A DNA stretch of 64,000 nt, taken from positions 1 to 64,000 of IMG/VR virus record IMGVR_UViG_3300042924_005664. One strand, written 5' to 3'. The notes under the pieces were generated by a model that did no database searches, had not been told where the DNA came from, and saw only the letters and a program-made list of their open reading frames with translations. The translations under genes were made by a program, and so were the position numbers. Of the stretch, positions 511 through 63,470 are shown in pieces (the first letter of the stretch is position 1; each line of letters opens with the position of its first letter). Source of the DNA: a virus.

Positions 511-1689
511 ATGCCAACTATTCAGGATGCCAATACCAAGATCACGAATTTCCCCAATAAATTCGTTAGTCCATGGGGGAACGATGCGATCACACCTCTG
601 TACTCCTCAATGCCTTTGAAGAGCCCAGTAGAAGGATGCTTGGAGTGCATTGTATGTGGGAGTTATAGCTCTAGGTATGAGATCATTTCTAGTAGTGAAA
701 GCGGAGTTGTTGCGGCTTTGACAATTCCAAGCACGCCCGAGGCTAGAGTTGTAGTAGTTGGAGGTGGAGGTTCTTCTCAAAATGCTTCTGTTGGTTTTAA
801 TCAATTTGCTTCAGGCGGAGGTGGGGGTGGTTCCGTAAATGAAATTCTTAATTTGGGGCTAATAGCTGGCGAGACTTACACCGCTCACGTCGGTAAAGGA
901 GGTATGCGTTGGTCTAATAATCTGGGGTTACCTTATTTTTCAGGAGAGGCTAGTTATTTTGGAATATCAGGTGAGAATCCAATAATTATTAGTGCTGGAG
1001 GAAATACTTCTGGATGCAGCCCATGCGGCCCAGTAAATCCAGTATTACCCCGCAGTTCTGGTGGGGGAAGCGGTTCGTACCTAGGTGGCTATCCTCCAAC
1101 CCTTGGGACGACACCAGCACTTGGTGGAATTGGAACTTTTGCTAATAATGGTTTTCAAGGGTGGACTGTCATTGCTGGTGGTGGCGGAGTGGGAGGAGGC
1201 GGAGACGCATCATCGACAAAAAATTCTTTTGGCAACGCATCTGTAGTGAAAGCAGGAGATGGTGGATCAGGAGTCTATTCTGTAATTGCTGGTAGATCTT
1301 TCGGCGGTGGAGGTGGTGGCGGAGCAGTGTCTTATTCTTTTTTCGGAACACCTGCTACAATAGTGCAGGGAGTTGGTGGGGGTGGAGGTGCTGGTTCTGG
1401 ATTTATTCAACCACTAAATCCCAGTGGATTCCCAATACCTTTCAATTGCAACAATACACCTTCAGCTTCATCTCCGTGTCCCGAACAAAATAGTGGAAGT
1501 GGAGCTGGCGGAGTGGCGGGCGATTATGTTCAACAAGTAACTGGTGCTGATGGACTAATCTTGCTACAAGTTCGAGCGGATAAGTACACTGGAGTAGTTA
1601 CTGGAGATGTTCAAATTACAGATGTTCTCTTTAGAGGAACTCTTATGAAACAGATTAAGTTTTTGGGTTCTGGAACATACACTGCGTAG
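511..1689 (+). CDS. Glycine-rich virion protein (tail/adhesin-like)
   Basis: A 392-residue protein. The first 60 residues form a small domain (NKFVSPWGNDAITPLYSS and the cysteines of CLECIVCG) that is repeated almost unchanged in the next protein. From about residue 75 it becomes a Gly-rich solenoid with runs of Gly separated by hydrophobic beta strands, as in the glycine-rich domains of phage tail fibres that form poly-Gly-II-type bundles. It starts with ATG 3 nt after the preceding stop. A likely role is receptor binding or fibre tip; this is inferred from composition and position. Confidence 0.7.
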   Translation: MPTIQDANTKITNFPNKFVSPWGNDAITPLYSSMPLKSPVEGCLECIVCGSYSSRYEIISSSESGVVAALTIPSTPEARVVVVGGGGSSQNASVGFNQFASGGGGGGSVNEILNLGLIAGETYTAHVGKGGMRWSNNLGLPYFSGEASYFGISGENPIIISAGGNTSGCSPCGPVNPVLPRSSGGGSGSYLGGYPPTLGTTPALGGIGTFANNGFQGWTVIAGGGGVGGGGDASSTKNSFGNASVVKAGDGGSGVYSVIAGRSFGGGGGGGAVSYSFFGTPATIVQGVGGGGGAGSGFIQPLNPSGFPIPFNCNNTPSASSPCPEQNSGSGAGGVAGDYVQQVTGADGLILLQVRADKYTGVVTGDVQITDVLFRGTLMKQIKFLGSGTYTA

Positions 1690-3380: not shown

Positions 3381-4235
3381 ATGGGCGGATCTCCACAAGT
3401 ACAAGCACCCGATAACAGGCCCATGTGGGCTGCGCTGCAGATGCAGCAGAGTGGGCAGAATCAGGCGATGCAAAATCGTGCTGATCTACTCAAGTACATG
3501 TCTCAAATTTCTCCTGCGGTCTCTTATACCGACATTTGGGGGCAGAAGGGAGCTGCAAATGTGGCGAAAGATGCCGCAGAGATCAACTATCGCAACCAGC
3601 AGGCGATGCAGAAGGCGCTCGATCCTCAAGGTTTCCAGATTGCCGAGGATACTCGTAACCGAGTAGCCCAGATGGTTAGCCCAGCTGGACAGAGGGCGCT
3701 AGCCAACCAGCAGTTTGCACAGCGTACGTTACCGGGAATGTACAGCACTGGCCTCGATCCCCGTTCCACCATTTACGCGAGTGGATTGTTTGACGCCAAT
3801 ACGCTTCAGGGTCTCCAACTTCAGCAGCAACTTGCCAACATCGGACAAGGATATGGGGCTGCGAACCCAGCGCCTCGAGTTGGAATTGATCCCGGCATTG
3901 CGGCCTCTATCGCCTCTCAGGAAGGGGCACGTGCTGCGGATCGCGCAAACGCATTTACGCAAAATCTTCTCCAAGGTGCAGGAAACCTTCAGCAGAGCTA
4001 CGAGCAAGGAATGAACAGCCTCTACAGCAACATGGGACAAGCGGTTCAAACTGATGCGGCCAACCGATTGGCAGCACAGCAAGCAAGCCAGTCCGCACAA
4101 GCTCAGGGTGCAGGATCTTTGTATCAGGGTCTAGGTGCCCTAGGTGGCGGTATAATCGGATCCTTCGGAGGCCCAGCGGGAACTGCGAGTGGAAGTTCTT
4201 TGGGAAGTTATCTGCCCAGAGCTTTTGGAGCTTGA
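3381..4235 (+). CDS. Gln/Ala-rich probable internal virion protein
   Basis: A 284-residue protein starting MGGS and dominated by Gln, Ala, Asn and Gly, with long predicted helices (QMQQSGQNQAMQNRADLLKY). The last 45 residues are Gly-rich and apolar. Proteins of this composition next to a giant internal protein resemble podovirus ejection proteins. Role inferred from composition and from its place directly before the proteins at 4329, 4842 and 6537. Confidence 0.65.
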   Translation: MGGSPQVQAPDNRPMWAALQMQQSGQNQAMQNRADLLKYMSQISPAVSYTDIWGQKGAANVAKDAAEINYRNQQAMQKALDPQGFQIAEDTRNRVAQMVSPAGQRALANQQFAQRTLPGMYSTGLDPRSTIYASGLFDANTLQGLQLQQQLANIGQGYGAANPAPRVGIDPGIAASIASQEGARAADRANAFTQNLLQGAGNLQQSYEQGMNSLYSNMGQAVQTDAANRLAAQQASQSAQAQGAGSLYQGLGALGGGIIGSFGGPAGTASGSSLGSYLPRAFGA

Positions 4236-4249
4236 AAGTAAATTTATTT

Positions 4250-4279
4250 GTTGTATCCAATTAGAAATTGCAATACAAC
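4250..4279 (+). terminator. Stem-loop between virion genes
   Basis: A 7-bp stem (GTTGTAT with ATACAAC) stacks on a 5-bp stem (CAATT with AATTG) around a 3-nt loop, with a small internal bulge. It fills the 93-nt gap between the genes at 3381 and 4329. There is no U-tract afterwards, so it may be a partial terminator, an RNA processing site or a stability hairpin. Confidence 0.5.
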
Positions 4280-4328
4280 TGCTGACAAAATTAACCACTA
4301 AAACTAACCCCTAACCAATTAAAATATC

Positions 4329-4829
4329 ATGGGTGGATCAAGAGGCGGCGGCGGCGGTAATAACGACAATTCAATGGCAATGATGGCGATGATGCAGCGC
4401 CAGCAAGAAGCGGCTGCGGCTGCTGCTCGTGAAGCCGCAAGGCAAGCTGCCATCCAAGCTCAGAACCAAGCCAACCAGCAGATGGCTAATCAAAGCCAGC
4501 AGGCGGTTAGTCAATACTTGAGCCAGCAGAATCAATTGCAAAAGGGTCAGGATCTAGCTTCAACGCAAGCCGCTGCTCAAGCAGCCGCTGGAGCTGGTGG
4601 AGCCGCTACTGGCGGTGGTTATGATATCAACCAATCCAAGCAGGAAGCGCTTTCCAATCTCGGAGCAGCCGCTGGTGGAATGCCAATGACAGCAGCAAAC
4701 CAAGTTGGAGCTGGTGGATCTACAATGAACCCAGCCGCCGCAGGACAAGCTGCAATGGTCAATCAGTCCGCTCAACCTAATCAGTTCGCTATGCCGTCCA
4801 TGGCGGGGATCACTTTCGGAGGATCCTAA
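4329..4829 (+). CDS. Ala/Gln-rich low-complexity virion-associated protein
   Basis: A 166-residue protein: MGGSRGGGGG start, then a long Ala/Gln/Arg helix (AAAAAAREAARQAAIQ) and a Gly/Ala-rich tail. The opening resembles the protein at 3381, suggesting a related family. It sits after a hairpin gap and directly before the gene at 4842. Probably an internal or ejection component; no catalytic motif is visible. Confidence 0.6.
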   Translation: MGGSRGGGGGNNDNSMAMMAMMQRQQEAAAAAAREAARQAAIQAQNQANQQMANQSQQAVSQYLSQQNQLQKGQDLASTQAAAQAAAGAGGAATGGGYDINQSKQEALSNLGAAAGGMPMTAANQVGAGGSTMNPAAAGQAAMVNQSAQPNQFAMPSMAGITFGGS

Positions 4830-4841
4830 TCCCCTCCGAAA

Positions 4842-6530
4842 ATGGCGCTTGATACCTCTGGCTTTGGTTTGAATTTGGGTCAGGAGCAGGTGATTGTGCC
4901 TTCTCTTGCTTCCCTAGCTCCCTACGCACCCAACTTTCAGGGTCTCGCGTGGAAACCCGCTAATATTCAAGCTCCAGACATGTCGGAGGCTAAAGGACTA
5001 GGTGCAGCACTTGGTTCGATCGGTGCAGGAATTCAGGTTGCGTACAAGACGGCACAAGAAGAGCAGAGAGAACTTCGCAAGGACGCCCTAGACAGGGCAA
5101 AACTTGCTGCCGCTGAAAACAGGGACGCTATTCGGGAGGCACGTACTCAACAGACCCATGCCGACTCCATGGCGATGCAAGCGGCCAACCTCGCCGTGTC
5201 TCAGGGTCAGCTGCGACTAGCACAACAAAAGCAAGCGGACAAAGCGGGTGGAGCCCCCGATTACAGCGAGTATCTAAACCCCCAAAACGCTGAGGATACC
5301 GCTGCTGGAGACAGGATCATGGATGTGATGGAGGGGATTAAAAAGAAAGGGACTCCCCAGTACTTTCCAGAATCGAAACTTGAACTAGGTGCCCCAGCGC
5401 CTCAAGTGGACGAGCCTAGTATGTCTTTCGATGGCGGGAACAATCTCGGCTCTCTATCTGCTCCAGTAGTGATGCCTCCGCAGGAGGATCAAAGATATGC
5501 CGCGCTGCGAGAAATGGGCGGAAGTGTTTCTCCTTTCAGCGTAGCTAGTGCTGATGGAGCTGGGCCATCAGAACCAACTCCCAATCTGCCCTATTCGCTG
5601 CAGGGCGGAGTACCGAAGCCACTTGCTGGTGTGCAGGTTCCTAGCACAAGGGAGCTCTACGCTGGAACTGGATTCTCTCCAACTCCTATTCCAACTTACG
5701 GAACTGCGGCGCAAGAAACTTCTGCGGCTAGTGGCACAGCGGCGCAACCTTCCAGATCACCGATCGTAGCGTTTCCGATAACTGATCCAAATGGAGGCAC
5801 CCTAGGCTATGCGTACTACGATAAGGTTTCCCGAAAATTAATACCGGGTTCTTTCGTTTCTGAAACAAAGAAATCTGATTCCACAGCGCCCCTCGCTGGA
5901 GTTCAAATTCCAGAAGGACAAAAGTTAAAGGGCATGACTATCTCGGCGGAGGGTAAGCCTAGCTATACCTACGGACTAGAGAGTGAAGGAAAATCTGCTG
6001 CACCCCTGCTGCAGGATCAGATGAAAATCCTCACCAACCTTGAGGGCGCTAACGCCACCTTGAATAATATCGAGAAGACTCTCAAAGAAGTCGGCACTTC
6101 TACTGGCCCAGTTGTCGGCGTTGCTAGGGGATACAACCCCTACGATGTCGTCGCCCAGTCTGTGGAGAACATGGTGAATAGTTTGGTGCCGGGTCTTGCT
6201 CGCGGCGTCTTCGGCGAGGTCGGCGTTCTTACTGACCGAGATGTGGATAGGTACAAGAAACTTATCCCCAACATGAGGACAGATCCTAAAGTTGCAGAGC
6301 AGATCATGAAGGATCTGCGTGAAAAACTAAACAGCACCAAGAAAGCCAACTTGGGAGTCTGGGAAAAAGCTGGCTACAACGTGGGGGGATTCAAAGAGGA
6401 TCAATCTTCCGCGCAAACTGAGCTTGAAACTTTGGCAAAAGAAATTGATTCTGCTAAGGATCAAAACTCACCAGCTATTCTTGCAAAAAAGAAAAGAGCA
6501 ACTGAACTTTACCTCTCGCAACGCAAATAA
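4842..6530 (+). CDS. Probable internal virion (ejection-type) protein
   Basis: A 562-residue protein. An N-terminal helical region is followed by a Pro/Ser-rich middle, and the C-terminal 170 residues carry GVLTDRDVDRYKKLIPNM and a helical hairpin ending in LGVWEKAGYNVGGF. Blocks of the type VLTDxDxxRYKxxxP are frequent near the ends of large phage internal or DNA-ejection proteins. It lies directly before the giant virion protein, with 6 nt between them. Function is inferred from the block and the context. Confidence 0.65.
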   Translation: MALDTSGFGLNLGQEQVIVPSLASLAPYAPNFQGLAWKPANIQAPDMSEAKGLGAALGSIGAGIQVAYKTAQEEQRELRKDALDRAKLAAAENRDAIREARTQQTHADSMAMQAANLAVSQGQLRLAQQKQADKAGGAPDYSEYLNPQNAEDTAAGDRIMDVMEGIKKKGTPQYFPESKLELGAPAPQVDEPSMSFDGGNNLGSLSAPVVMPPQEDQRYAALREMGGSVSPFSVASADGAGPSEPTPNLPYSLQGGVPKPLAGVQVPSTRELYAGTGFSPTPIPTYGTAAQETSAASGTAAQPSRSPIVAFPITDPNGGTLGYAYYDKVSRKLIPGSFVSETKKSDSTAPLAGVQIPEGQKLKGMTISAEGKPSYTYGLESEGKSAAPLLQDQMKILTNLEGANATLNNIEKTLKEVGTSTGPVVGVARGYNPYDVVAQSVENMVNSLVPGLARGVFGEVGVLTDRDVDRYKKLIPNMRTDPKVAEQIMKDLREKLNSTKKANLGVWEKAGYNVGGFKEDQSSAQTELETLAKEIDSAKDQNSPAILAKKKRATELYLSQRK

Positions 6531-6536
6531 TTTATT

Positions 6537-9500
6537 ATGGGATTTCTTGACGAACTGGATCAAAAATATGCTCAAGAGACCCCGAAGGAGGAACCGACTA
6601 AGCCTAGTGGTTTCTTGGGGGAGCTAGAGAGTAAGTACAAGGATGCTCCCGTAGAGCAGCCCAAGTCATTCCTAGAAGAGCTGGATCAGAAATATGACGT
6701 AAACCCAGACTCTCTACGCAATAGGCAATCTCGTGGAGAACCTCTTTCCATGGAGCAGGAGCGCATCGTATTTGATGCGAACCGAGCACGTGGTCTTGGG
6801 GAACAAGCAGCTGCAGCTGGCAAGGGCGTCTATGCCAGCCTTAGCGAAATGGTTCCTCAAGCCTTCGAGGGAACCAAGAAAATCATGGGTGCAGGCAAAG
6901 ACTTGGCAAAAGAAATTGGAATCAAGTACCTAGACGTCAATCCGCTTGTGCCTGAGATTGCGGTCAACTATATCGCTGGCAATACAGCAGAAGACCGAAA
7001 AGCTAATTTGGAAAAAGCTGCTAAGAGAGAAGCAGATATCGTCAGGTCATTAGCATCTGGAGCCGTTCAGGCTGGCGAAGAAGTAATCAACGAAGCCGCA
7101 CGTGGAGCTTTCTTTGGTACGCCCATTACAGATCTCGTTCAGGAATACCCAGCTGGCAAGTTGGCAGTTGAAGCCATGAAGGCGGGTGGCCCTGTAGCAC
7201 TTGCCACTAAAGCACTTGGTGGAAAGATTTTCGGAGAGCCGCTGGTTGATCTGCAGCCGATCACAAAGGACGAATCGTTCCAGAGGTCGTTGAGTCGTGA
7301 GGACATGCGCCAGCAGGAGCAGCAGGAGTATAAAGATTTGCCAGAAAGAACTACCGCAGCGTTGGTAAAGCTAGCTGAAAGTTCCGCTGGATCTTTGCTT
7401 GGAAAATCTTTGGGAGTCCCTTCCGACGAGCAGTTCCAAAAGGACTTGGTTCAGGAGCTCAAGAATAACGCGATCGTCCCCGACGAAGACGTTGCGTTGA
7501 TGGGCAATATGTTGAGCCCGCTGGATCCTACCTTTGTCTTGGCTGGGCCGCTTGCAAGGGCATCCTCGAAGGTATTCGATGTAGCCTCAGAAGCTGGTCT
7601 TCGAGCGCTTACAAAGCCAACTATTGCTGGAATGAACCCCCTCGAAGCAACGGGACGGGTAATACGATTTAGTGGAGAGGGCGCACAGAATGTTGCAAGA
7701 AAGTTCAGCGACTTTTTGACTGGGTCAGAAGACAGCTTCATCGGCAAGCTAGCGGATCCGATCGTGGCGGTGACTCGACGCCCCGGCATAATGGTCGAGG
7801 GCGCAGGGCGGGCTCTCAGGGACGTCGGACGTCAGATCGACGACGTCGGAATCCGCTCCCGCACGGGCATCATCGAGCGGGCGGGGCAGGACGTACGTTC
7901 TGGGGATTTCATGCGGACGGTCTTCGGGGCTGGAACCGAGAAGGCTCAGGCCAAGGCACTCAAGGCGTCCGAAAAGCTAGCCGAGGAGGGCGTGGATACT
8001 GGCGCTTCCGCACCAGCGCTTTCCTCCAAGCGACGTGCAGCCGCGAGAACTGCGGACTGGGTATTCCGACAAGCCGAAGCCTTAGCGCGTTACGGCACAA
8101 GCGGAGCGGCCATCGGAACCGCGCTCGGACTGCCAGACATTGAGAACGCGGAGGCGCTTGGACAGATGGCTACTACTGGAGCCATGGTCGGAGCCATCGG
8201 AGGCGCGAGGCTCGGAGAGAAAGGCGCAAAGCTAATTGATCCTAGGGTTTCGCTTAAAGGAAAGATCGACGCCATCCTAGCCGACGATCCCGTATCAAGG
8301 CGTGCTGACGAGGACGCCGACATCGAGCGTTTCAGAAGTACTGCAGCACCAGACCTTATCAACAAGGCCAACGAATTTGGGAATATCAATTCCGTTCTGC
8401 AATCTTTTGACGGCCACCTCCAGAATCTAGACTTTCAACGCGAGCAAGCGATTGCCCGTGGCGAGGCGGACGTCGCCGCTGGGATAGAGCTTGAAATTAA
8501 GAAGACTGCAGCCAGCAAGGACGCCGTTTCCAAGATGACTCCTGACGCCATGAAGGAGTACCAGCGCCGAGTGGACTTGACGCTAGCTGACGCGCTAGAC
8601 CAAGCAAAAACTACTGGCGAGGCGGTGGGTCTCAACAACATCGAGATCAAGCTGCTCTCCCCAGTCGAGATGTTGGGCTACCTTCGCGACAAGTGGGGGA
8701 CGACCCTAACGAATGCCGAGTACGTTCTCCAGTCACTGGCTGGCAACAATGATCTAAGCGATCAAGATCAGCAAAAACTTAATCAGGCGAGGGAGACTAT
8801 CAACCAGTTCAACTACATGTATCAGACCGCGATGGGTCAGCGTGGATACGCCATGTCTGATAACACGTATTCAGATAGCCCCATGCATTTGCGTCCAGCA
8901 AATCTCAAGACTCCATCGGTTGTCATTAATTCCGAACTAGTCAAGAGCCAGCTCGGAAACAATCTGTACGGAACTCTGGTTCACGAAACCAATCACGCAC
9001 TTAGGAATTTCAAGGAAGTTAAATCCATGATGGCTCCCATTGAGGAGTACTTGTTTGGTAAGAAAGTTCAAAACGCTGATGGAAGCATCACGGAGATTTC
9101 CAAAGGAATTTACGACGACGCGGCGATCGATCGCATGGGCGATTACTACGCGGAGCTTTTGGGCGGAGACAAGTGGAAGGCAGGATTCGCTACCGAGGGT
9201 CAGTATAGGAACTACATCAAGGAAGAGATTCTTGCGGAGGCCGCTGGCCTGTCCTCCAACACGGCAAACCTACGAGCTGACTTGGATTCACCGGGTCAAG
9301 CCTTCATCGATTGGGCCGCTACCTCCAACAAGAATACCTTGATCGGAAAACTACGCGACGCACTCGGGCTGAAAGGAATCTTGCTAGACGACTCAGGAAG
9401 AATCTCAGACGTTCTGGGAGAGACGATCTCACCAGAAGTTCTCGCGCTGACTCGTCAGTTCCAGCGCCAGCTCAGAGACTACAATGGATCCTTGTCGCAA

Positions 9501-12500
9501 ATTACTTCCGCCAGTGGGCCAGAAGTTACAATCTCAGCTCCTGAGTTGCTATCGAGCAAAATTCTTCAGAACAAGTATCGTGGGCTAGACATCTGGCAAA
9601 AGGAACAGGTGCTCACGATCAAGGACGACGAAGGAAACGTGGTCAACGAGATCGTAGTGCCTCAGTCTGCGTCGCTCAACGCGCTCGTGGGTCAGTACCG
9701 CCTCGAAGATGGCATGCTTGTGGACGAGAACGGAAACAAGATGCAGATCGCTCCCGAGATCGCTGCAGCCAATCTCCCAAACAACACCAGTATTTCGGTA
9801 GACCAAAGAATTGCTAGGAACCCCGATGGGTCTCCAAGGATCCTATCGAATCGTGAGATTCAAGCACGTGCTAGAAAGCGCGCAGAAGTGCTGAAAAACG
9901 CCATCGAGGGCGCTATGGAGGATGGCTCAACAAACCGAGTCCGACCAGTCGGAGAAAACGAATACGCTGGAATCCTGAGCCCCACTCAGCTGCAGGCGAT
10001 CTTGGAACTCCCCAACGACATCGTGGCTCCTGAGTTGAAGCGCAAGATCGCGGCCTTCAACGAGACGGCCCTACGCAAGGATGGAACGCGAATGATCGTC
10101 GAGTACCAAGCTGCGATGAAGGGCGGAAAGTACAAGGCGCTCGCACCCAAGATCCGAGACGTCGTTCCATTTGGGTTCCGCATCACAAAGGATGGCAACT
10201 TCCTAGCGACTACGATTTCTGTCAGCAGAATTTTCGACAAGATCAACGAATGGGCGAAGCCAAACAGGAACAGGCTGAACCTTTGGAACGGCGACACCAA
10301 CGCGTTGTGGGAAGACATTATCCACGTCCTGAAGAATCACCAGAAGGGCGAGCGCGGAGAAGTCGGACTCGACGTTGATCCAGACATGGCGGTTCTCAAG
10401 AAGAATCGAATCAACGACATCTTCAATCTCTTCGACAAGGCTACCGAGTCTAAGAATCCCGATCGTTCCGTAAGCAAGACGCGTAAGGGCCAAGACTCAA
10501 TCGACCGCGTGATCATGGGAATGAGGATGGATCGTGTGAACGACTTCCAGATTTCAAACGCCCAGAAGATCCCCGTAGACTACGGCAAGATCAAAGAAAA
10601 CTACATGCCCAACGTGCCTGTGGACGTTGTTCAGAATAATGTTGCCGAGGAAGGCGGCTTAGGTTACAAAGAATCTCCAACCATCAAATATCGTGAACCA
10701 AAATACGAAACCACCAACCCCCCAAGACTGGGATACATCGATCCGCGAACTACAGCGGAAGGTCGAAGAGTCCTCAGCGAGAGTCCGATCCTCGCGCAAG
10801 CATACGACGCCCTTGAAAGAGCGTCTGAGGCTGGCGGAGATCAGCGCCCAACTTCAGGGTCTTCGGTAATACCAGCTGAGACAGAAGCTCTTAGGGAGTT
10901 TGCAAATAGTTCGGGGGCCATGGAGTCTCCTGAAGCCGTCCAAAAATTCACTGATGATTGGAACGCAGAAAATAGAAATGCTGGAACTGAACATCAGGTT
11001 TTATTCGGCGATAAAGATCGGATAGAAAAGCGTTTCACAGCCACGTATGACGACACGTGGAAAAACTATCTCGATAGGATTTTGTTGCACAATATCCTAT
11101 TTAAAGATTCGGCGATTAAACTAGAGGGCTTTCAGGAAGTTCCTGAGAAAACACAGGATCGTAGTGGGAACGAGTGGAGCCCGGGGCTTTACGCCAAGAT
11201 TTCTCAGCCCTACGCCGAAGGTCAACAGGTAGATCTCATAAAGGATCTCAAGCCGTACATGGAATCGTTGGGCTTCGTTTCTAATGGGCCGATGAATTAT
11301 TACCACCCTGAATATGGCGTCCACGTATCGGATTTGCACCCGGGCAATGCATACGTAGAAATAGATGCACAAGGAAACAAGCACGTAACCGTCTTTGATC
11401 CCGGCTTGCACATGACGGGCGAGAAAGAAGGTGACGCCAAGGAACGCGCCCGTGTTGAAGCCAAGTTGGCTGCTCAAAGACCCGTGGAGGACGTGGGTTT
11501 CAGCTGGCCGAAAGAGATTGATGACGCAATCGTTCGCGTGAGGTCGGTACTCGATAATCCAGACAACATGCCGACTCAGGTGAAGCCTGAAGCGCCGCTG
11601 CCCGTAAGCCTGTACGAGGCTGGTACTAGCTTGGAATCATTCGGGATCAATTCGCTCAAAGAAATTGCCGAGCACTATGGTTTCCCCATCCCAGAGAAAG
11701 CAAAGCGCGGAGAGATCATCGACCTAGTTGAAAACAGGTCGTCTGACGTACAATTCAGGCCCGCAAACATCACTCGTGAAGTCGGAGCTAACGAAGACTT
11801 CATCACGATACCCGAAGAGGAAGCCGCTAGGTCTGCGCTGAACAGCAGCAAGCAGCCGAAGTTTGGGGCAGCTAGAGATCTCGAAGCTGGGTATCCCGTG
11901 GCGCTGCGAATCGACATCCCTGCGTTCAAGTCAACTGGAAACTACGTTGTGACGGTTCACGAGAAGGGAACCCCCAGCAAGGTTGGCGAGGTCATCGGGT
12001 ACGACACCATTGCACGTATCGACAATCCCCAGTTCATGTCTAACGAGACTGGAGCGGAGAAGATTAAAAAAGGAGAGAGCAACAAGTTCCCGATTGCCAC
12101 GGTGGCGGGAGAGTTCAACCCATCACGCGAGATGCCTGCAGATATCAACGACTGGACACCAGTCGGATTCGATCCTAGCGAGCACTCGTACTTCTACGAC
12201 AAGGCGACCGACGAGCTTGTGCTTGGCGGAGACGAGGCCGTGAGTGTTGGCAACACCGTCTTCGTTAAGAATCCAGTCTACGGCGATAAAGCCACAGCTA
12301 GGTTCATGCCAGCCGCTGGCGAGTCAAAGCCTGTCCCAACGCAGGAAGAGCTTGATGCGATGAAAGAAGGGTTGCCTCCATATCAAGCAAAAATTGGAGA
12401 GCTTTCCGAGGGGAGGTTTGGATTGAACCTGTATACTGACAATGGTTTGTATGTCGGAAACATAGAGGGTCAAATTAGAGAGTCTGATCCAAGTAAAGTG

Positions 12501-15374
12501 TATATCTATGATGCCGAAGTCATGCCTCAATATAAAAAACTAGGCTACGGACAAGCCTTGTATCGTGAGCTTGCAAAATATGCACAAGACAATGGTGTGA
12601 AAACTATCTGGGGAAACCCCGTAAGCAAAGAAGCGGTAGCTGTTCGCAGGAAATTATTTGATACCTATACTGGGAAAGAAAACACGCTTGGCGGCTATAG
12701 TTATGCAGGAAGTAGGATTCCAAGCGACATCTCCTTCATGCCAGCAAGCAAGGGCGACTCGCCAGCCTCCAGCCTCTCCAAGGACGAGCGCGACACCGCA
12801 GTAAAGTTCCTCGAACGCGGAACACTAACCGCAGCCAACGTCTTCGACGCGCTCGCGAAGCTCGCCAACGGCGACATGCAGTCCATTACCGAGAAGCTAT
12901 CTACGGGACGCCTCTTCGAGCTCGCGCACCGCGCAACGGGCACTCCCATCCTGAACCGCGTCGATGCGATCTCCGCCATCCGCAACGAGATCAATAGCCG
13001 CAAGGACGCAATGCCTCAGAGCAGCATTGCATCACCCATGGCCGACGACATCATCCGCACGCCAGTAAATCGTATGGCCGCGCAGGGCGCTCAATTCAAG
13101 CCCGCAACTAAAATTGAAGGGGCGGAAGAGATCGAAATAGCTCCCGGGTTCCAGAAAGCGCTAACTAAAGGCGGGAAGTGGGCTGTTTATGCTTCCAATA
13201 ATATATTAGCTACTGGAAAGCAATTCGATAGTCCTGAAGCTGCAGATGAAGCGGCTAAAATAATAGCTAACGCCAATGAACCACTTCAAGGAATCCCTTA
13301 TTCCTTGCAAGAAGGACGCACTGGAAAGTGGAAGATTATCGACAAGAAGGGAGAAGCCGCAGCGTCCAAAACTTTTTCTAATCCTGCTGAAGCCGCAGAG
13401 TATGCCGTAGCATTGCATCGTGAATCATTGCCGCTTTCTGCAGTCAAAAAGTTGATGCCTAAAGCAGATAGAGATGCGGTTACTGAGGCTGAACAACGCA
13501 TTGCTGACATGCAGGCTAAGAATCCTGAAGCAATGCCTCTGGTGGTGACTAGAGATGCTGATACTGGTCTTCCGAAGATTGATCTTTTAGAAGACGCAGA
13601 AGGCAATCCAGTTCTTGATGAAAAAGGCAAGCAGGTTCGTGGAGTGATCTTTAGTCAGGTTCCCTACAAGTTGCGTCAGTCTCCAATGCTTGATGCTAAA
13701 GACGACAATGTCGCAGTGCAGCAGGCAGCAGACTTAATGACTCCTGAAGTAGAAATAGCCATGGCGGATCCTTCGGTAGCCAAGGCTATCGGATGGTACA
13801 AGAAAATGCGTCAGCAGCTGCAGCAATACTACGGCGCAAATATTGAGCTTTTCGGACAACTTCTCGGAGCTACTAGCGCACGTACTCCCGTTGATGAGAA
13901 TTTCAAGCAGACTATTGAAGCTGCAAGACAATATTCTAAGGGAGCCTATGACGCTCTGCTTCAAAGATTCCATGAACATATTGTTAAGGCTACCGAAGAT
14001 CTTGCTTCAGGTGCTTTACAAGCGAGTTGGGAGAAAAAGAATCCTACTAAAACTTGGAACCAAGAAAAAGATGGAGCGGACGCTCTCCGCATGGAGATCA
14101 ATAAATTCAGTGAAGTTCCAGTCAGGTCTAACGGCAAAAAGTTCAATGCTAATTCCCAGAAAGTTCTGCACGCATTGTATGGGAATTGGTTGACTCAAAC
14201 CGTAGGGCCGAAAACCCCCAATTTTGCTGGCAACCTCACGGGGCGCACTCTCAGAGCTACAATCGACGTTTGGGCCGCACGCAATCTTCGTCGTTTGCTT
14301 TACGACGATGGTTCTAGTCAGTGGCGTTTGCTCCCTGAACAAGAGAAAGGAGTAGACTCTGCTTACAATGCCAAAGGCGAGCTGACGGGAGATTTCCCGT
14401 TTGCCCAGAATGTGTACGACGAAGTTGCCAGTCGCGTTAATATGAACGCTGATGATTTGCAGGCTTTGATGTGGTTCTATGAAAAGGGAATCTGGGATCA
14501 AAACGGATGGACTGGGGCACTTGGCGCTAAAAAGAGTTCCTTTGAAGAGGAGGCTGAAAAGCTGTCTCTTGATCGCTACCAAGCTGGAGTTACGGCTTAC
14601 ACGAACGAAGGCCAATATCCAAACCTAGAAGAATTCACTGCTGGGGTGCAGGAAAAAACCCGCAAGGAATTGCGTGATTCAATCGGCCAGCTTCCCGGTG
14701 TGGAAATCTCCAGAGTTACCCACACGGATGGACTCTATGGTGGGTCTGTAGAGCCTTCCTTGGACGTTGAATTTAGCGTTTCTCGGGATAAGAACGGAAA
14801 ACCCCAGTCGATTGCTTCCGTAATTGACAGGCTCAAGGCTATTGGAAAGGAACAAAATCAATACGATACGTTCATATCTCAGCTAGTAGACAAAGAGCAT
14901 CCGAATGCACGTCCGATGGTCGAGATAGGCTTTAAAAACGCCGCGAAACCAGAAGAAGTAGAGGCTGTTGTCAAAGCCTTCCGTGACGCTGGGATCGACG
15001 GCTTTACCCTAGCCAAGGACAGCAAAGGAAACGTGATCGGAATCCGCGCACAATACATCCCAGAGATATCTTCCCGTTGGGATGAAGAAGGCCGAACAGA
15101 TCTCTTAGATCCAGAAAAACACGGCGAATCATCGCAGAATTGGGCGGATAAAGCTCGTCAAGCCATTAATTCCCTTGGCGATCAAGAGAATGTGAGCTAT
15201 AAGAATGAAGGATATGTCTCAACCCACGTTTATGGAAAAGAAGAATACGACGCAGAAACCAGCCCACAAGACCTTCTCGGAAGCGATGTCCGAGATCAAT
15301 TGGGGAGAAGGAAACGAATCCTTGAAGCCCTTGCCGGGGAGGGACAGATACCTAGCGGGATCGGCTCGGACTGA
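6537..15374 (+). CDS. Giant polyvalent virion protein (metallopeptidase-, kinase- and GNAT-like blocks)
   Basis: At 2945 residues this is the largest gene in the window. Three short N-terminal repeats (FLDELDQKY, FLGELESKY, FLEELDQKY) open it. A zinc-peptidase-type HETNH lies at residues 816-820, with a possible downstream Glu ligand near 895-900. Around 1500-1625 the segment YLDRILLHNILF, then VSDLHPGNAYVE, then VFDPG matches the kinase domain described in phage polyvalent proteins. Residues about 1870-1925 (TPVGFDPSEHSYFYD) are a block recurrent in such proteins. Residues about 1955-2060 look like a GNAT acetyltransferase (YKKLGYGQALYRELAKYA). Proteins of this class are thought to be packaged and injected to counter host defences. 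The catalytic assignments are motif-level only. Confidence 0.8.
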   Translation: MGFLDELDQKYAQETPKEEPTKPSGFLGELESKYKDAPVEQPKSFLEELDQKYDVNPDSLRNRQSRGEPLSMEQERIVFDANRARGLGEQAAAAGKGVYASLSEMVPQAFEGTKKIMGAGKDLAKEIGIKYLDVNPLVPEIAVNYIAGNTAEDRKANLEKAAKREADIVRSLASGAVQAGEEVINEAARGAFFGTPITDLVQEYPAGKLAVEAMKAGGPVALATKALGGKIFGEPLVDLQPITKDESFQRSLSREDMRQQEQQEYKDLPERTTAALVKLAESSAGSLLGKSLGVPSDEQFQKDLVQELKNNAIVPDEDVALMGNMLSPLDPTFVLAGPLARASSKVFDVASEAGLRALTKPTIAGMNPLEATGRVIRFSGEGAQNVARKFSDFLTGSEDSFIGKLADPIVAVTRRPGIMVEGAGRALRDVGRQIDDVGIRSRTGIIERAGQDVRSGDFMRTVFGAGTEKAQAKALKASEKLAEEGVDTGASAPALSSKRRAAARTADWVFRQAEALARYGTSGAAIGTALGLPDIENAEALGQMATTGAMVGAIGGARLGEKGAKLIDPRVSLKGKIDAILADDPVSRRADEDADIERFRSTAAPDLINKANEFGNINSVLQSFDGHLQNLDFQREQAIARGEADVAAGIELEIKKTAASKDAVSKMTPDAMKEYQRRVDLTLADALDQAKTTGEAVGLNNIEIKLLSPVEMLGYLRDKWGTTLTNAEYVLQSLAGNNDLSDQDQQKLNQARETINQFNYMYQTAMGQRGYAMSDNTYSDSPMHLRPANLKTPSVVINSELVKSQLGNNLYGTLVHETNHALRNFKEVKSMMAPIEEYLFGKKVQNADGSITEISKGIYDDAAIDRMGDYYAELLGGDKWKAGFATEGQYRNYIKEEILAEAAGLSSNTANLRADLDSPGQAFIDWAATSNKNTLIGKLRDALGLKGILLDDSGRISDVLGETISPEVLALTRQFQRQLRDYNGSLSQITSASGPEVTISAPELLSSKILQNKYRGLDIWQKEQVLTIKDDEGNVVNEIVVPQSASLNALVGQYRLEDGMLVDENGNKMQIAPEIAAANLPNNTSISVDQRIARNPDGSPRILSNREIQARARKRAEVLKNAIEGAMEDGSTNRVRPVGENEYAGILSPTQLQAILELPNDIVAPELKRKIAAFNETALRKDGTRMIVEYQAAMKGGKYKALAPKIRDVVPFGFRITKDGNFLATTISVSRIFDKINEWAKPNRNRLNLWNGDTNALWEDIIHVLKNHQKGERGEVGLDVDPDMAVLKKNRINDIFNLFDKATESKNPDRSVSKTRKGQDSIDRVIMGMRMDRVNDFQISNAQKIPVDYGKIKENYMPNVPVDVVQNNVAEEGGLGYKESPTIKYREPKYETTNPPRLGYIDPRTTAEGRRVLSESPILAQAYDALERASEAGGDQRPTSGSSVIPAETEALREFANSSGAMESPEAVQKFTDDWNAENRNAGTEHQVLFGDKDRIEKRFTATYDDTWKNYLDRILLHNILFKDSAIKLEGFQEVPEKTQDRSGNEWSPGLYAKISQPYAEGQQVDLIKDLKPYMESLGFVSNGPMNYYHPEYGVHVSDLHPGNAYVEIDAQGNKHVTVFDPGLHMTGEKEGDAKERARVEAKLAAQRPVEDVGFSWPKEIDDAIVRVRSVLDNPDNMPTQVKPEAPLPVSLYEAGTSLESFGINSLKEIAEHYGFPIPEKAKRGEIIDLVENRSSDVQFRPANITREVGANEDFITIPEEEAARSALNSSKQPKFGAARDLEAGYPVALRIDIPAFKSTGNYVVTVHEKGTPSKVGEVIGYDTIARIDNPQFMSNETGAEKIKKGESNKFPIATVAGEFNPSREMPADINDWTPVGFDPSEHSYFYDKATDELVLGGDEAVSVGNTVFVKNPVYGDKATARFMPAAGESKPVPTQEELDAMKEGLPPYQAKIGELSEGRFGLNLYTDNGLYVGNIEGQIRESDPSKVYIYDAEVMPQYKKLGYGQALYRELAKYAQDNGVKTIWGNPVSKEAVAVRRKLFDTYTGKENTLGGYSYAGSRIPSDISFMPASKGDSPASSLSKDERDTAVKFLERGTLTAANVFDALAKLANGDMQSITEKLSTGRLFELAHRATGTPILNRVDAISAIRNEINSRKDAMPQSSIASPMADDIIRTPVNRMAAQGAQFKPATKIEGAEEIEIAPGFQKALTKGGKWAVYASNNILATGKQFDSPEAADEAAKIIANANEPLQGIPYSLQEGRTGKWKIIDKKGEAAASKTFSNPAEAAEYAVALHRESLPLSAVKKLMPKADRDAVTEAEQRIADMQAKNPEAMPLVVTRDADTGLPKIDLLEDAEGNPVLDEKGKQVRGVIFSQVPYKLRQSPMLDAKDDNVAVQQAADLMTPEVEIAMADPSVAKAIGWYKKMRQQLQQYYGANIELFGQLLGATSARTPVDENFKQTIEAARQYSKGAYDALLQRFHEHIVKATEDLASGALQASWEKKNPTKTWNQEKDGADALRMEINKFSEVPVRSNGKKFNANSQKVLHALYGNWLTQTVGPKTPNFAGNLTGRTLRATIDVWAARNLRRLLYDDGSSQWRLLPEQEKGVDSAYNAKGELTGDFPFAQNVYDEVASRVNMNADDLQALMWFYEKGIWDQNGWTGALGAKKSSFEEEAEKLSLDRYQAGVTAYTNEGQYPNLEEFTAGVQEKTRKELRDSIGQLPGVEISRVTHTDGLYGGSVEPSLDVEFSVSRDKNGKPQSIASVIDRLKAIGKEQNQYDTFISQLVDKEHPNARPMVEIGFKNAAKPEEVEAVVKAFRDAGIDGFTLAKDSKGNVIGIRAQYIPEISSRWDEEGRTDLLDPEKHGESSQNWADKARQAINSLGDQENVSYKNEGYVSTHVYGKEEYDAETSPQDLLGSDVRDQLGRRKRILEALAGEGQIPSGIGSD

Positions 15375-42641: not shown

Positions 42642-42715
42642 CGCGCGGTAGTGAAGAAGCCTCACGTTGCTTTCATACGGCAAAAACTCTGGTGCAATTC
42701 CAGACCGCGCCACCA
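42642..42715 (+). tRNA. tRNA with CAU anticodon (Met or Ile2), unusual
   Basis: A cloverleaf can be built by hand: acceptor CGCGCGG/CCGCGCC with a C1-C72 mismatch, D stem GTGA/TCAC with a 7-nt loop lacking the usual GG, anticodon stem TTGCT/GGCAA with loop TTCATAC (anticodon CAU), variable loop AAAC, T arm TCTGG-TGCAATT-CCAGA, and encoded ACCA. The unpaired 1-72 position recalls initiator tRNAs, but the three G-C pairs of an initiator anticodon stem are absent. The short D loop also raises the possibility of decay. Confidence 0.7.
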
Positions 42716-42730
42716 AATAAAATTCAATTT

Positions 42731-42804
42731 TACCCTTTGGTGTAACGGTAGCACAGATCGCTTTGACCGATCTAGTCATGGTTCAAATCCATGAGGGGTA
42801 GCCA
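42731..42804 (+). tRNA. tRNA-Gln (UUG)
   Basis: A complete cloverleaf: acceptor TACCCTT/AGGGGTA, D stem GTGT/GCAC with loop AACGGTA, anticodon stem GATCG/CGATC with loop CTTTGAC (anticodon UUG), variable TAGT, T arm CATGG-TTCAAAT-CCATG, discriminator G and encoded CCA. It reads CAA (and CAG by wobble). Confidence 0.93.
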
Positions 42805-60011: not shown

Positions 60012-63000
60012 ATGTTCGTCTCAGAAATCTTTAGCGAGGCGGCTGAGATTTTAGGAACAACCGACGAAAGCAGGGTATTCCGAAAGCTCACTCAGGCCGT
60101 GCAGGCTCTCATGGAGAGTGGACATTGGTTCCACACTACCCGTGAGGTTGACGTTTGCACTGGTTGGGACGGGTTTACGGTCACGCTCCCCAAGGACATT
60201 GAAGTTCCCTTGGCAGTCAATGTCGATGGATCCCCTTTGTATTTCCGAGGGAAACTTTTCCAGTACCACGTCAATCAGGGCGGTAGATTCGAGTCAGTGA
60301 ATTGGGCTTGGGACGACCGAGGATTCGTCGCTACTCAGATGGACATTCGCCAGCCAGCTCAGGTCATTGCAGTTGCCGAGAGCGAAGCAGACGTTGGAGC
60401 AACTCTTAGACTTGTTGGAACCAATCAATGGAATCGCGATCTGCGAGGTCAAACTCCTGATGGAACTGGAGTCGATGGGTTGATCATACCCATCCATAGC
60501 ATGAGTGATTTTGCTCGCGGAACAATTAGACCTGATGACGATACTATCGTTACCCGTGAAGTAGCCGTCACTCCGATCACAAAATTTGTTTCAACTACTC
60601 CCCATGAACTTAACTCTGGACAAGGAGCAATTCTCTCCACCATTACTGGAACCACTCCAACTGGACTTACTGATTCCAATCAATACTTTGTGGGGGTAGT
60701 CAATCCTACAACCATTCAGCTCTACAATGATCCTCTCTACGCAAAGAGTGGAACGTATCCAATTGCTTTGTCAAATATTACAAATGCAGGAACCTTGAGA
60801 CTGACTGATCAAAGGACTGCAAAATTAGTGACTACTGTTGAGCTAAATGCAGCGCCAACAATTTCGGTTAGCATGGGGAATCCTGTAACTTTTGAAGGAG
60901 CAGTTCTACCAAGCCCCTTGGTACAGGGAGTCACGTACTACGTGAACGCTATCGATGCTACAAATTTTCAAATATTTGCAAGTCTCTCGGATGCACAAAC
61001 TAAAACCCGTCCAGTTTATTTGACGGGCTATACAGGTGGGTTTTCTATTTTCTTCAGAAAGCCGATTGCACCCATAACAAAGCTAACCTTTTCTGTACCG
61101 CATTACTACTCCACGGGAGATATAGTTCAAGCAACTTCCAATGGCGGAAATCTTCCCCAACCCCTCGTAACGTCTCAAAATTACTACATTTACAAGATTG
61201 ATGACTACACGGTTACCCTTCACGTATCGAATTCGGATGCAGAGACAGGAATCAATCCGATTGTTTTGATAACTTCTGGATCTGGTCAGAACTCTTTGGC
61301 GAAATTGATTCCCGCAACGGTCGCCATTGGAACCACAAGCAATGTGCTGGCTACAGACGTTGGATTGATACCAGCTACTGGTTCTGGGGCTTCTGTTAGA
61401 GCCAATCGAGTTGGCCCGATCACGAACATAATCGTCACTGCACAGGGTTCTAGTTATGAAACTGCTCCCAGCATTGCATTTGATAGCACTGGCGGAACTG
61501 GATACGTATCCACCCCCTCCGTACAATTAGTTGGTGGAGCTGGAGCTGGAGCAGTATTCACTGCCAATGTTGCTGGAGGTAAAATCACATCTTTTACAAA
61601 AGTATCGGGTGGCAGTGGGTACACATTTCCCCCCAACGTAGTTATTACAGGTGGAGGCGGTGGATATGGCGCAGACGCTACCGCTGTAATAGTTGCTGGT
61701 GCCGTTGATTCCCTTGTTCTCAATCCTGTTGGAACTGGACTTACCGCACGAGTGCTGATAAATGCAACTTCAAAGGTAGTGACAAACGTGGTCATCGATG
61801 ACCCGGGTCAAGACTATCAATTCCCCCCTAGGGTGACTATTTCTGGTGGCGGCGGAGCTGGTGCTACCGCATCCTGCACATTGACCACATCGTTCATAAC
61901 GAGCTACACGATTCTTGACGGTGGATCTAACTACCTATATCCACCAGCGGTGTCTATCTCTGGTGGTGGTGGTACGGGAGCATCGGCAACTGCTGTGGTT
62001 CAAAACGGAGTAGTAGTGTCGATATCTGTGGTTGCTGAAGGAACTGGATACGCATCACCTGCGACTGTGAATATAATTCCCTCCACTGGTGCATTTGTTC
62101 AGTTCACGAGTACTGGAACTCTTCCAGCGCCATTAGTTCAAGGCACTACTTACCGAGCAGAAGCCCCATTGTCGGCCAATGGCTTCACTGTTGTGAACGC
62201 TGATTTTAGCCCAGTGAATATTACGTCACTTGGTTCGGGGTCATTGTTCGTGGTTATTTCTAGGACATTTGGAGTTTCATTCACGAATGATTGGGCTGGA
62301 GATTTTTCCGCAACACCTACTGGAACTGGCTTTTATTTTGGAACCGATTACTTGCTGCCAATCACATCTCCACCGATCGATACCGAAACTGAATTCTGGT
62401 TGAGGAAATTAACTAATGATACGGCTCAAGTTTACGACACCCAAGCCCATGCAAATGCTGGCGGTGCCACTGGAAAGATAACTATTACTTCATTTGGAAC
62501 GGGTCAGTCGTACTACGCAATTGAAGAAACAGCTCAAGCAGTTTCTTACGACAACCAAGTGTCTGTAAGTAATATCCAGTACCTTTCGGATGGAGAACGA
62601 GTGAAGATGTCCACAACTGGAACTCTACCAGCACCACTACTCGATACCCGCGAGTACAATGTTAAAATCGTAGAGTCAAACATTCAACTTTTTTACGAGG
62701 GATTGCTTGTTGATTTTACTACGCTTGGAGTCGGTGAATTAAGATTGAATATCATTAGAGATTTTTCCGTTGTCCCAGCCACAACCATAACTCTAAACAA
62801 TGCCTTTTTCGACTCAGGTACTCAGGTTATTCCTAGAGCGTCTGAAAACGATTCGCTGCCCACTCCGCTTTTGCCAAACACCTCGTACTTCGTGAGGTTC
62901 TTTGATAAGAATGAGATTGAGTTGTACGACACCTTTGCGAATGCCATGGCGACAGGAAATACTGGTCGTATCTCATACACAAAGACGGGCGACTCACTAG

Positions 63001-63470
63001 AAAGCGTATTTTTTGTAGACGCAATTGAAGAGAAAACCCTTGTAAAAGCTATTTACCACGTTGAAAAGCCAGTGACTCAGGGATACGTGAGTCTTTATGC
63101 TTACGACTATGGTCGCAGCAACGACATGACTTTAATCGGTCAGTACCATCCTACCGAAGTGAATCCTAAGTATCGGCGTGTGCGTCTTGGATCCGCCTGC
63201 TCTTGGGCTAGAATTATCTACCGAGTCAAGGCACCCAAGATAACTAGCATGTTTGATTATATCCCCGTTGAACAGGAACGCGCTTTGATTGCGGCTGTTC
63301 ACGCGGTTGATTTGGAAGACAAGGACTTCATGGATCAGTCTGCAAGATACTGGGCGATGGCGTTGAACTATCTGAAGAACCAGCAGAACAGCATGGATGG
63401 GCACGCCTTCGTTCCTCCACAGATCAACAACATCACGTACGGAGACGGCACAGATCCCGTGATGTTCTAG
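60012..63470 (+). CDS. Large tail-tubular/structural protein with Gly-rich repeats
   Basis: 1152 residues. N-terminal EIFSEAAEILGTTDESRVFR and TQAVQALMESGHWFHT resemble the head-to-tail or tail-tubular A-like start of short-tailed phages. Middle: repeated Gly-rich strands (AGAGAVFTANV, SGGGGTGASATAVV) and TYYVNAIDATNFQIFASLSD-type repeats. The C-terminus contains conserved MALNYLKNQQNSMDGH. It probably forms the tail shaft or base. Confidence 0.72.
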   Translation: MFVSEIFSEAAEILGTTDESRVFRKLTQAVQALMESGHWFHTTREVDVCTGWDGFTVTLPKDIEVPLAVNVDGSPLYFRGKLFQYHVNQGGRFESVNWAWDDRGFVATQMDIRQPAQVIAVAESEADVGATLRLVGTNQWNRDLRGQTPDGTGVDGLIIPIHSMSDFARGTIRPDDDTIVTREVAVTPITKFVSTTPHELNSGQGAILSTITGTTPTGLTDSNQYFVGVVNPTTIQLYNDPLYAKSGTYPIALSNITNAGTLRLTDQRTAKLVTTVELNAAPTISVSMGNPVTFEGAVLPSPLVQGVTYYVNAIDATNFQIFASLSDAQTKTRPVYLTGYTGGFSIFFRKPIAPITKLTFSVPHYYSTGDIVQATSNGGNLPQPLVTSQNYYIYKIDDYTVTLHVSNSDAETGINPIVLITSGSGQNSLAKLIPATVAIGTTSNVLATDVGLIPATGSGASVRANRVGPITNIIVTAQGSSYETAPSIAFDSTGGTGYVSTPSVQLVGGAGAGAVFTANVAGGKITSFTKVSGGSGYTFPPNVVITGGGGGYGADATAVIVAGAVDSLVLNPVGTGLTARVLINATSKVVTNVVIDDPGQDYQFPPRVTISGGGGAGATASCTLTTSFITSYTILDGGSNYLYPPAVSISGGGGTGASATAVVQNGVVVSISVVAEGTGYASPATVNIIPSTGAFVQFTSTGTLPAPLVQGTTYRAEAPLSANGFTVVNADFSPVNITSLGSGSLFVVISRTFGVSFTNDWAGDFSATPTGTGFYFGTDYLLPITSPPIDTETEFWLRKLTNDTAQVYDTQAHANAGGATGKITITSFGTGQSYYAIEETAQAVSYDNQVSVSNIQYLSDGERVKMSTTGTLPAPLLDTREYNVKIVESNIQLFYEGLLVDFTTLGVGELRLNIIRDFSVVPATTITLNNAFFDSGTQVIPRASENDSLPTPLLPNTSYFVRFFDKNEIELYDTFANAMATGNTGRISYTKTGDSLESVFFVDAIEEKTLVKAIYHVEKPVTQGYVSLYAYDYGRSNDMTLIGQYHPTEVNPKYRRVRLGSACSWARIIYRVKAPKITSMFDYIPVEQERALIAAVHAVDLEDKDFMDQSARYWAMALNYLKNQQNSMDGHAFVPPQINNITYGDGTDPVMF

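What the first reader, a model, noticed from the sequence alone, without database searches (positions are those of the whole stretch)
6537..15374. Giant injected-type protein combining peptidase, kinase and acetyltransferase blocks
One 2945-residue chain carries HETNH (816-820), a phage polyvalent kinase-like block (about 1500-1625) and a GNAT-like block (about 1955-2060), plus other blocks seen in polyvalent proteins. Such proteins are believed to enter the cell with DNA and disable defences. The N-terminal triple FLxELxxKY repeat may be a packaging or attachment tag.
Basis: partly seen in the sequence, partly recalled or inferred. Interest (0 to 1): 0.65.

Follow-up and report, generated by a model that had tools for sequence, protein, structure and literature searches.

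The report
Phage giant protein with swappable cassettes
This uncultured phage makes a 2,945-residue protein whose front half is constant and carries a peptidase, and whose back half is a string of exchangeable enzyme parts joined by short 'Phe/Tyr-x-Pro' peptides, which may be where the protein is cut after being carried into the bacterium.

Summary
One intact 2945-aa ORF carries HETNH at 816-820, a Kinase-PolyVal domain (1448-1606, E 1e-15) and a GNAT (1962-2025; GNAT fold confirmed), plus three N-terminal FLxELxxKY copies. It is a phage polyvalent protein, a kind already described (Iyer 2017). Comparison with twelve further relatives fetched here, nine of them complete, showed more. Residues 1 to about 1365 form a conserved scaffold with exactly one HExxH/HExxxH site in every member reaching that region. 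The rest is a string of cassettes that are present, absent or reordered between phages. A short peptide, [FY]-[MLKRQ]-P-[AG], recurs at cassette borders. Several cassettes match end to end from one motif to the next, and the same upstream end is followed by three different cassettes. Homology breaks fall within 6 residues of a motif 23 of 84 times (3.8 expected), but not always; the kinase's right edge lacks one. In one distant relative the peptide is constant while codons vary as chance predicts. The motif also brackets cassettes in two giants with another scaffold. I propose that the zincin cuts at or near these peptides and releases effectors. This, and virion delivery, are inferred and untested. 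New variant of a known kind.

The parts
6537..15374 (+). Giant polyvalent protein gene, 2945 aa
6543..6569 (+). N-terminal repeat copy 1, FLDELDQKY (res 3-11)
6612..6638 (+). N-terminal repeat copy 2, FLGELESKY (res 26-34)
6669..6695 (+). N-terminal repeat copy 3, FLEELDQKY (res 45-53)
6537..10631 (+). Constant scaffold (res 1-1365), 35-91% identical in most relatives fetched and about 32% in the most distant one
8982..8996 (+). Zincin motif HETNH (res 816-820); HELLAH (HExxxH) in L001
9225..9227 (+). Glu897, invariant in A6, candidate third zinc ligand
   Evidence: in a predicted helix
9861..10613 (+). Region (res 1109-1359) whose best structural matches are WYL-domain regulators; tentative
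   Evidence: no sequence support
10602..10613 (+). Junction peptide 1, YMPN (res 1356-1359), end of scaffold
10878..11354 (+). Kinase-PolyVal domain (res 1448-1606)
11619..11750 (+). Rho-N/SAP-like stretch (res 1695-1738), weak PHROG matches to phrog_10541 and an endonuclease VII family
11754..11765 (+). Junction peptide 2, FRPA (res 1740-1743)
11766..12302 (+). Cassette shared with L001, L003 and L206 (phrog_586-like; sub-cutoff Phage_L5_gp82 in relatives)
12303..12314 (+). Junction peptide 3, FMPA (res 1923-1926)
12315..12734 (+). GNAT cassette (res 1927-2066), absent from L001 and L003, present in L206 and L207
12735..12746 (+). Junction peptide 4, FMPA (res 2067-2070)
12747..13094 (+). Cassette of unknown function (res 2071-2186), shared with L001 and L003
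13095..13106 (+). Junction peptide 5, FKPA (res 2187-2190)
13107..15371 (+). C-terminal part (res 2191-2945), different in each close relative; DUF7178-like stretch at 2503-2647 (sub-cutoff)
3381..6530 (+). Three upstream genes (284, 166 and 562 aa) in the same order before the giant in relatives; likely ejection-protein partners
   Evidence: role inferred from composition and position

Best explanation
The gene makes a phage polyvalent protein built like a polyprotein. Shown: a constant scaffold of about 1365 residues (N-terminal triple repeat, one zincin-type site, possibly a WYL-like fold) is followed by exchangeable cassettes (kinase, Rho-N-like stretch, LPD-like block, GNAT, C-terminal block in this phage; ART and others in relatives) whose borders are often marked by an aromatic-x-Pro peptide. 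Inferred: the protein is packaged with the neighbouring gene products and ejected with the DNA, the N-terminal repeats dock it to a lineage-specific virion partner, and the zincin cuts at or beside the [FY]xP[AG] peptides to free the cassettes, which then modify host targets. My odds: architecture 0.9, virion delivery 0.75, cleavage at the junction peptides 0.4.
For: Cassettes match end to end between motifs in different contexts: 161/161 residues at 100% (L138.2/L139.3), 206/206 at 97% (L138.4/L140.3), 110/110 at 95% (L139.5/L144.3), and the same upstream end GPGAKFMP is followed by three different cassettes. The GNAT cassette is bounded by FMPA..FMPA in the window, FLPA..YLPA in L206 and FIPP..YMPQ in L207, and is missing between the same seams in L001 and L003. 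Motif counts exceed composition: window 5 seen against 0.31 expected, none in its first 1250 residues. 23 of 84 homology breaks lie within 6 residues of a motif, 3.8 expected, maximum 11 in 5000 placements. In L206 six junctions keep [FY]LPA while codons vary as free synonymous choice predicts (0.733 against 0.714 +/- 0.028), which favours selection on the peptide. Two giants without this scaffold (L215, L217) also bracket cassettes with [FY]MP peptides and carry one HExxH each. Two of the junctions fall in stretches of pLDDT below 50 beside a well-modelled GNAT core. Iyer 2017 (PMC5512222) proposes autoproteolytic release by such zincins; the passages and search terms I checked give no cleavage sites.
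Against: No cleavage or virion data exist here. Not all cassette edges carry the motif: the right edge of the kinase (about 1649) and many breaks in L138-L144 (around 1800-1930 and 2250) do not. In L138/L143 the junction DNA is more alike than the peptide requires (0.844 against 0.773), so DNA-level seam homology or recent common descent also contributes. L001, with HExxxH instead of HExxH, has the same junction peptides. The zincin fold itself was not confirmed (best Foldseek E 0.05; weak Z about 4 to PprI). The mean model confidence is low (66 and 52), so low pLDDT at the junctions is weak evidence. The phages are related, so the homology breaks are not independent.
Confidence: 0.42

Rival explanations
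1. The [FY]xP peptide is a passive seam: a flexible linker that tolerates fusion, kept because recombination at short shared DNA and protein sequence assembles new cassette combinations; the protein works uncut.
For: Junction DNA in L138/L143 is more alike than synonymous choice predicts; cassettes exchange there; junctions lie in low-confidence stretches; N4 virion RNAP is packaged uncut (Iyer 2017).
Against: In L206 the peptide is constant with free codon variation, and the aromatic and Pro are kept across lineages, which a passive linker would not need.
Confidence: 0.35
2. The [FY]xP peptide is a docking motif, one per cassette, for a virion partner, chaperone or unfolding machine that loads or threads the giant through the tail.
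For: The variant tends to be uniform within a protein but differs between lineages ([RK]FMP, [FY]LPAK), as does the N-terminal triple repeat, which suggests a lineage-specific recognition partner.
Against: No partner identified; the scaffold, which also has to be delivered, has the motif at its end but almost none inside.
Confidence: 0.2
3. The protein is not delivered; it acts in the producing cell as a late assembly or takeover factor.
For: No proteomics exists; delivery rests on precedent and gene position.
Against: Position after a conserved block of Ala/Gln-rich, ejection-protein-like genes, and virion packaging reported for N4 gp50 and P1 DdrB polyvalents.
Confidence: 0.12
4. The ATG inside FMP junctions is an internal translation start that makes separate cassette proteins.
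For: Many junctions read TTC-ATG-CC.
Against: FKPA, FRPA, YQPA and FLPA junctions have no ATG at that place, and no consistent Shine-Dalgarno is visible by eye upstream.
Confidence: 0.03

Closest known systems
Phage/plasmid polyvalent proteins (Iyer et al. 2017, PMC5512222), e.g. N4 gp50 virion RNAP and P1 DdrB
   Same: Several unrelated enzyme domains in one chain, a zincin (HExxH or HExxxH), Kinase-PolyVal, GNAT, ART; predicted entry with DNA; autoprocessing proposed
   Different: Here the cassette borders often carry one recurrent [FY]xP[AG] peptide and there is a lineage-specific N-terminal triple repeat; I found neither in the parts of that paper I read or searched
Mosaic polyvalent proteins of Helicobacter (jhp1044) and the Verrucomicrobium spinosum cassette loci (same paper)
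   Same: Shuffling of domains between related elements
   Different: Those accounts, as far as read, describe domain combinations, not a shared junction peptide
Uncultured Caudovirales phage proteins A0A6J7WBL0, A0A6J5R0Z9, A0A6J7X551 (BFVD; names ART-PolyVal-like, NAT_SF, Large polyvalent protein associated)
   Same: Predicted fold of the scaffold matches, E 3e-15 to 1e-8, probability 1.00
   Different: Low TM-scores (0.16-0.29); sequences and junctions not examined; known by automatic names only
Polymorphic toxins (CdiA VENN, Rhs PxxxxDPxGL; from memory)
   Same: A short conserved motif marks where cassettes are exchanged
   Different: There one C-terminal cassette is exchanged in a secreted toxin; here several internal cassettes in a phage protein
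Planktothrix phage Pag-Yong1 'large polyvalent protein'
   Same: Shares the ETRGQN module found in L003
   Different: No recurrent [FY]MP junctions

Membership tests
Polyvalent proteins (Iyer 2017) | Two or more unrelated enzymatic domains in one phage polypeptide | tested here: met
   Kinase-PolyVal and GNAT above cut-offs, HExxH motif
Polyvalent proteins (Iyer 2017) | Encoded by a phage or mobile element | tested here: met
   IMG/VR virus record of 65,289 bases with a TerL-like gene and a DNA polymerase
Polyvalent proteins (Iyer 2017) | Injected with the DNA | not testable with these tools
   Only gene context
Zincin-like MPTase of polyvalent proteins | HExxH (or HExxxH) helix and a second helix with Glu | tested here: met
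   Motif in all 13 family members that reach the region, E897 invariant in A6, both in predicted helices
Zincin-like MPTase of polyvalent proteins | Zincin fold | tested here: inconclusive
   Model pLDDT 66; weak match to PprI, Z 4.0
Kinase-PolyVal (PF18762) | Profile match above the curated cut-off | tested here: met
   58.5 bits against 27
Kinase-PolyVal (PF18762) | Active-site residues present (catalytic-loop D and N, metal-binding D) | tested here: met
   SDLHPGN at 1598-1604, FDPG at 1620-1623; assignment by eye
GNAT | GNAT fold | tested here: met
   Foldseek matches to protein lysine acetyltransferases, GCN5 and RimI, E 6e-6 to 1e-4
GNAT | Acetyl-CoA loop (R/Q-x-x-G-x-G) | tested here: inconclusive
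   KKLGYG in the window (Lys in place of R/Q); RGKGYG in L206
WYL-domain proteins | WYL fold and sequence signature | tested here: inconclusive
   Top five VIA-align rows are all WYL regulators, Z 6.0-9.1 over 83-99 residues, but no sequence match
T7 gp15/gp16-type internal virion proteins | Sequence homology to known ejection proteins | tested here: inconclusive
   Only a marginal match to an Escherichia phage mellemsur 'internal head protein' (tblastn E 0.8, HMM 8.7 bits)
Self-cleaving polyprotein | Cleavage between modules by an embedded protease | not testable with these tools
   Needs protein chemistry

The most novel reading that the evidence does not exclude
These phages deliver a true self-cleaving polyprotein of effectors: a lineage-specific zincin in the constant half recognises an aromatic-x-Pro junction peptide that marks exchangeable cassettes, so any cassette gaining such ends can be plugged in and released inside the host.
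Probability: 0.35. Interest if true: 0.85.

Novelty: new variant of a known kind. Interest (0 to 1): 0.6.

Why it matters
Polyvalent proteins have been predicted since 2017 to be cut by their own zincins, but I found no sites proposed in the parts of that paper I checked. A recurrent junction peptide that often coincides with natural cassette exchange gives concrete sites to test, a way to parse unannotated cassettes in giant phage proteins into units, and, if it is a cleavage or docking signal, a tag for effectors carried in phage virions.

Tried and rejected
Exact DNA match to phage records: none. Protein match to phage records: only the LPD-like block. Scaffold in bacterial genomes: none. 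PADLOC defence families: none. Blind scan for GARFMPG: the only ORFs with more than one [RK]FMP are the giant family. Two-copy FLxELxxKY scan, restricted to TTC-CTN in the first copy: none. FSxRG-type peptides after the LPD block in L218-L232 were considered as an equivalent junction and dropped, because they are not clearly repeated along those proteins. Internal starts at FMP were rejected because many junctions have no ATG there. T7 gp15-like homology was not accepted (8.7 bits). A first alignment of the GNAT region misplaced L206 and was replaced by A7. PDB sequence searches with the scaffold profiles gave nothing below E 0.1. No PDB fold for the scaffold reached E 0.001 with Foldseek.

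Full report
Check of the observation. The ORF at 6537-15374 is intact, 2945 aa. Kinase-PolyVal (1448-1606, E 1.1e-15) and Acetyltransf_1 (1962-2025, E 5.5e-6) pass Pfam's cut-offs; a DUF7178 match at 2503-2647 does not. HETNH is at 816-820. The three N-terminal FLxELxxKY copies score far above shuffles. The window lies in a 65,289-base IMG/VR virus record.

Relatives. Scans of viral contigs with the protein and then with alignments of its N-terminal half gave twelve further relatives besides duplicates: L001, L002, L003, L197 (close), L138, L139, L140, L143 (the same contig as L069), L144, L204, L205 (about 35-40% over the scaffold) and L206 (about 32%). In addition there are L200 (cut short at a contig end), L141 and L142 (same as L140 as far as they go) and the C-terminal part L207. 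L001, L003, L138, L139, L140, L143, L144, L204 and L206 are complete; L002, L197 and L205 are cut off at contig ends. The homology of distant members covers residues 22 to about 1361 and then stops. No relative was found in bacterial genome contigs. In the close family and in L206 the same small genes precede the giant (126, 284, 166 and 562 aa in the window); the 126-aa and 284-aa genes are also recognisable in L138, L139, L144, L204 and L205.

Constant half. Each of the 13 members listed has exactly one HExxH or HExxxH. In A6 the two His and both Glu (E817, E897) are invariant; L001 has HELLAH, an HExxxH form that Iyer 2017 already describes for other polyvalent proteins, although its scaffold is 94% identical to the window's in this part. 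The AlphaFold model (725 aa, pLDDT 66) puts HETNH and E897 in helices. No PDB fold reached E 0.001 with Foldseek. VIA-align's five best rows are all WYL-domain regulators (BrxR, PafBC twice, CapW, DriD; Z 6.0-9.1) for the region 1109-1359, without sequence support, so this is a lead only. Viral predicted structures give E 3e-15 to 5e-5 matches to uncultured phage proteins, most with automatic polyvalent-type names.

Variable half. Between the window and close relatives that are 82-88% identical over the shared parts, whole blocks are present or absent: L003 lacks the kinase and GNAT and has another module; L001 lacks the GNAT; C-termini differ. In L206 the kinase sits near the C-terminus instead, and ART-PolyVal, GNAT and kinase are all found. 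The LPD-like cassette is 81% identical between the window and L206 while the scaffolds are 32% identical, the GNAT 44% and the kinase 33%; the terminase of those two phages is 67% identical. Cassettes therefore have histories of their own.

Junction peptide. [FY]-[MLKRQ]-P-[AG or similar] occurs at window residues 1356, 1740, 1923, 2067 and 2187. In the L138-L144 group, segments cut at this motif match each other end to end in different order, and one upstream end (GPGAKFMP) precedes three different cassettes: NRSEL in L138 and L139, DTSRLID in L140, and GFYDPDED in L144. Three divergent GNAT cassettes align from motif to motif. Against composition the motif is enriched in all eight giants tested, and 23 of 84 homology breaks lie within 6 residues of it, against 3.8 expected. 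These breaks come from related phages and BLAST ends are imprecise, so the exact odds should not be trusted; and most breaks are not at a motif, among them the right edge of the kinase. The motif was also defined on part of the same proteins before the break test was run. The codon test is mixed: in L206 the peptide is kept with free codon variation, in L138/L143 the DNA is also alike. The motif is not confined to this scaffold: L215 and L217, found through the LPD-like cassette, do not match the scaffold profile but have three [FY]MP each (P 0.001-0.003), placed around cassettes, and one HExxH each. It is not universal: Pag-Yong1, Mel-JY33 and L218-L232 do not show it repeated.

N-terminal repeat. 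Three copies are kept in position while the repeat sequence differs between lineages and is alike within a protein: window, L001, L003, L197, L204, L205 and L206 exceed all shuffles; L143 does not. This pattern suits docking to a lineage-specific partner; that is inference.

Interpretation. As a kind, this is a polyvalent protein in the sense of Iyer and colleagues, who read the zincins as likely processing enzymes and noted mosaicism in other groups. What is added here is a candidate signal at the module borders. I favour cleavage at or beside it by the embedded zincin (0.4), with a passive seam (0.35) and a docking motif (0.2) as close rivals. None of these can be decided from sequence. Delivery in the virion rests on gene position and precedent.

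Noticed in passing
window 511-1689 and 1701-2519: Two neighbouring genes share the first ~60 residues (MPxIQ..FPNxFVSPWGND..PLYSSxPL..) but have different Gly-rich C-terminal parts; the same N-terminus recurs in neighbouring gene pairs of L001, L002 and L003, and once each in L197 and L206. It looks like a virion anchor with exchangeable ends.
   Followed up: partly
L001:10001-18634, residue 826: The zincin motif is HELLAH (one residue longer) where all other members have HExxH, in a scaffold part 94% identical to the window's.
   Followed up: partly
L003:10001-18508, residues 1455-1972: Module with FRAVHDAIAH and ETRGQN, related to phrog_3170 and found in cyanophages and in hypothetical proteins of many mycobacteriophages; function unknown.
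   Followed up: no
window 14043-14477 (residues 2503-2647): DUF7178/phrog_3842-like stretch (GPKTPNFAGNLTGRTLRATIDVWAAR) that by eye resembles a helix-hairpin-helix DNA-glycosylase core; L001 and L003 seem by eye to carry divergent versions at their C-termini.
   Followed up: no
L218-L232: After the LPD-like block these other giants read FLFSTRGEQA or DFAFSxGG and then diverge at once, possibly another junction type, but it is not clearly repeated along those proteins.
   Followed up: partly
window 60012-63470: 1152-aa ORF with several PHROG matches to baseplate, connector and virion structural families at residues 580-700, probably a repeated adhesion-type domain.
   Followed up: no
window 42642-42804: tRNA-Met (cat) and tRNA-Gln (ttg) side by side after the terminase gene.
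   Followed up: no
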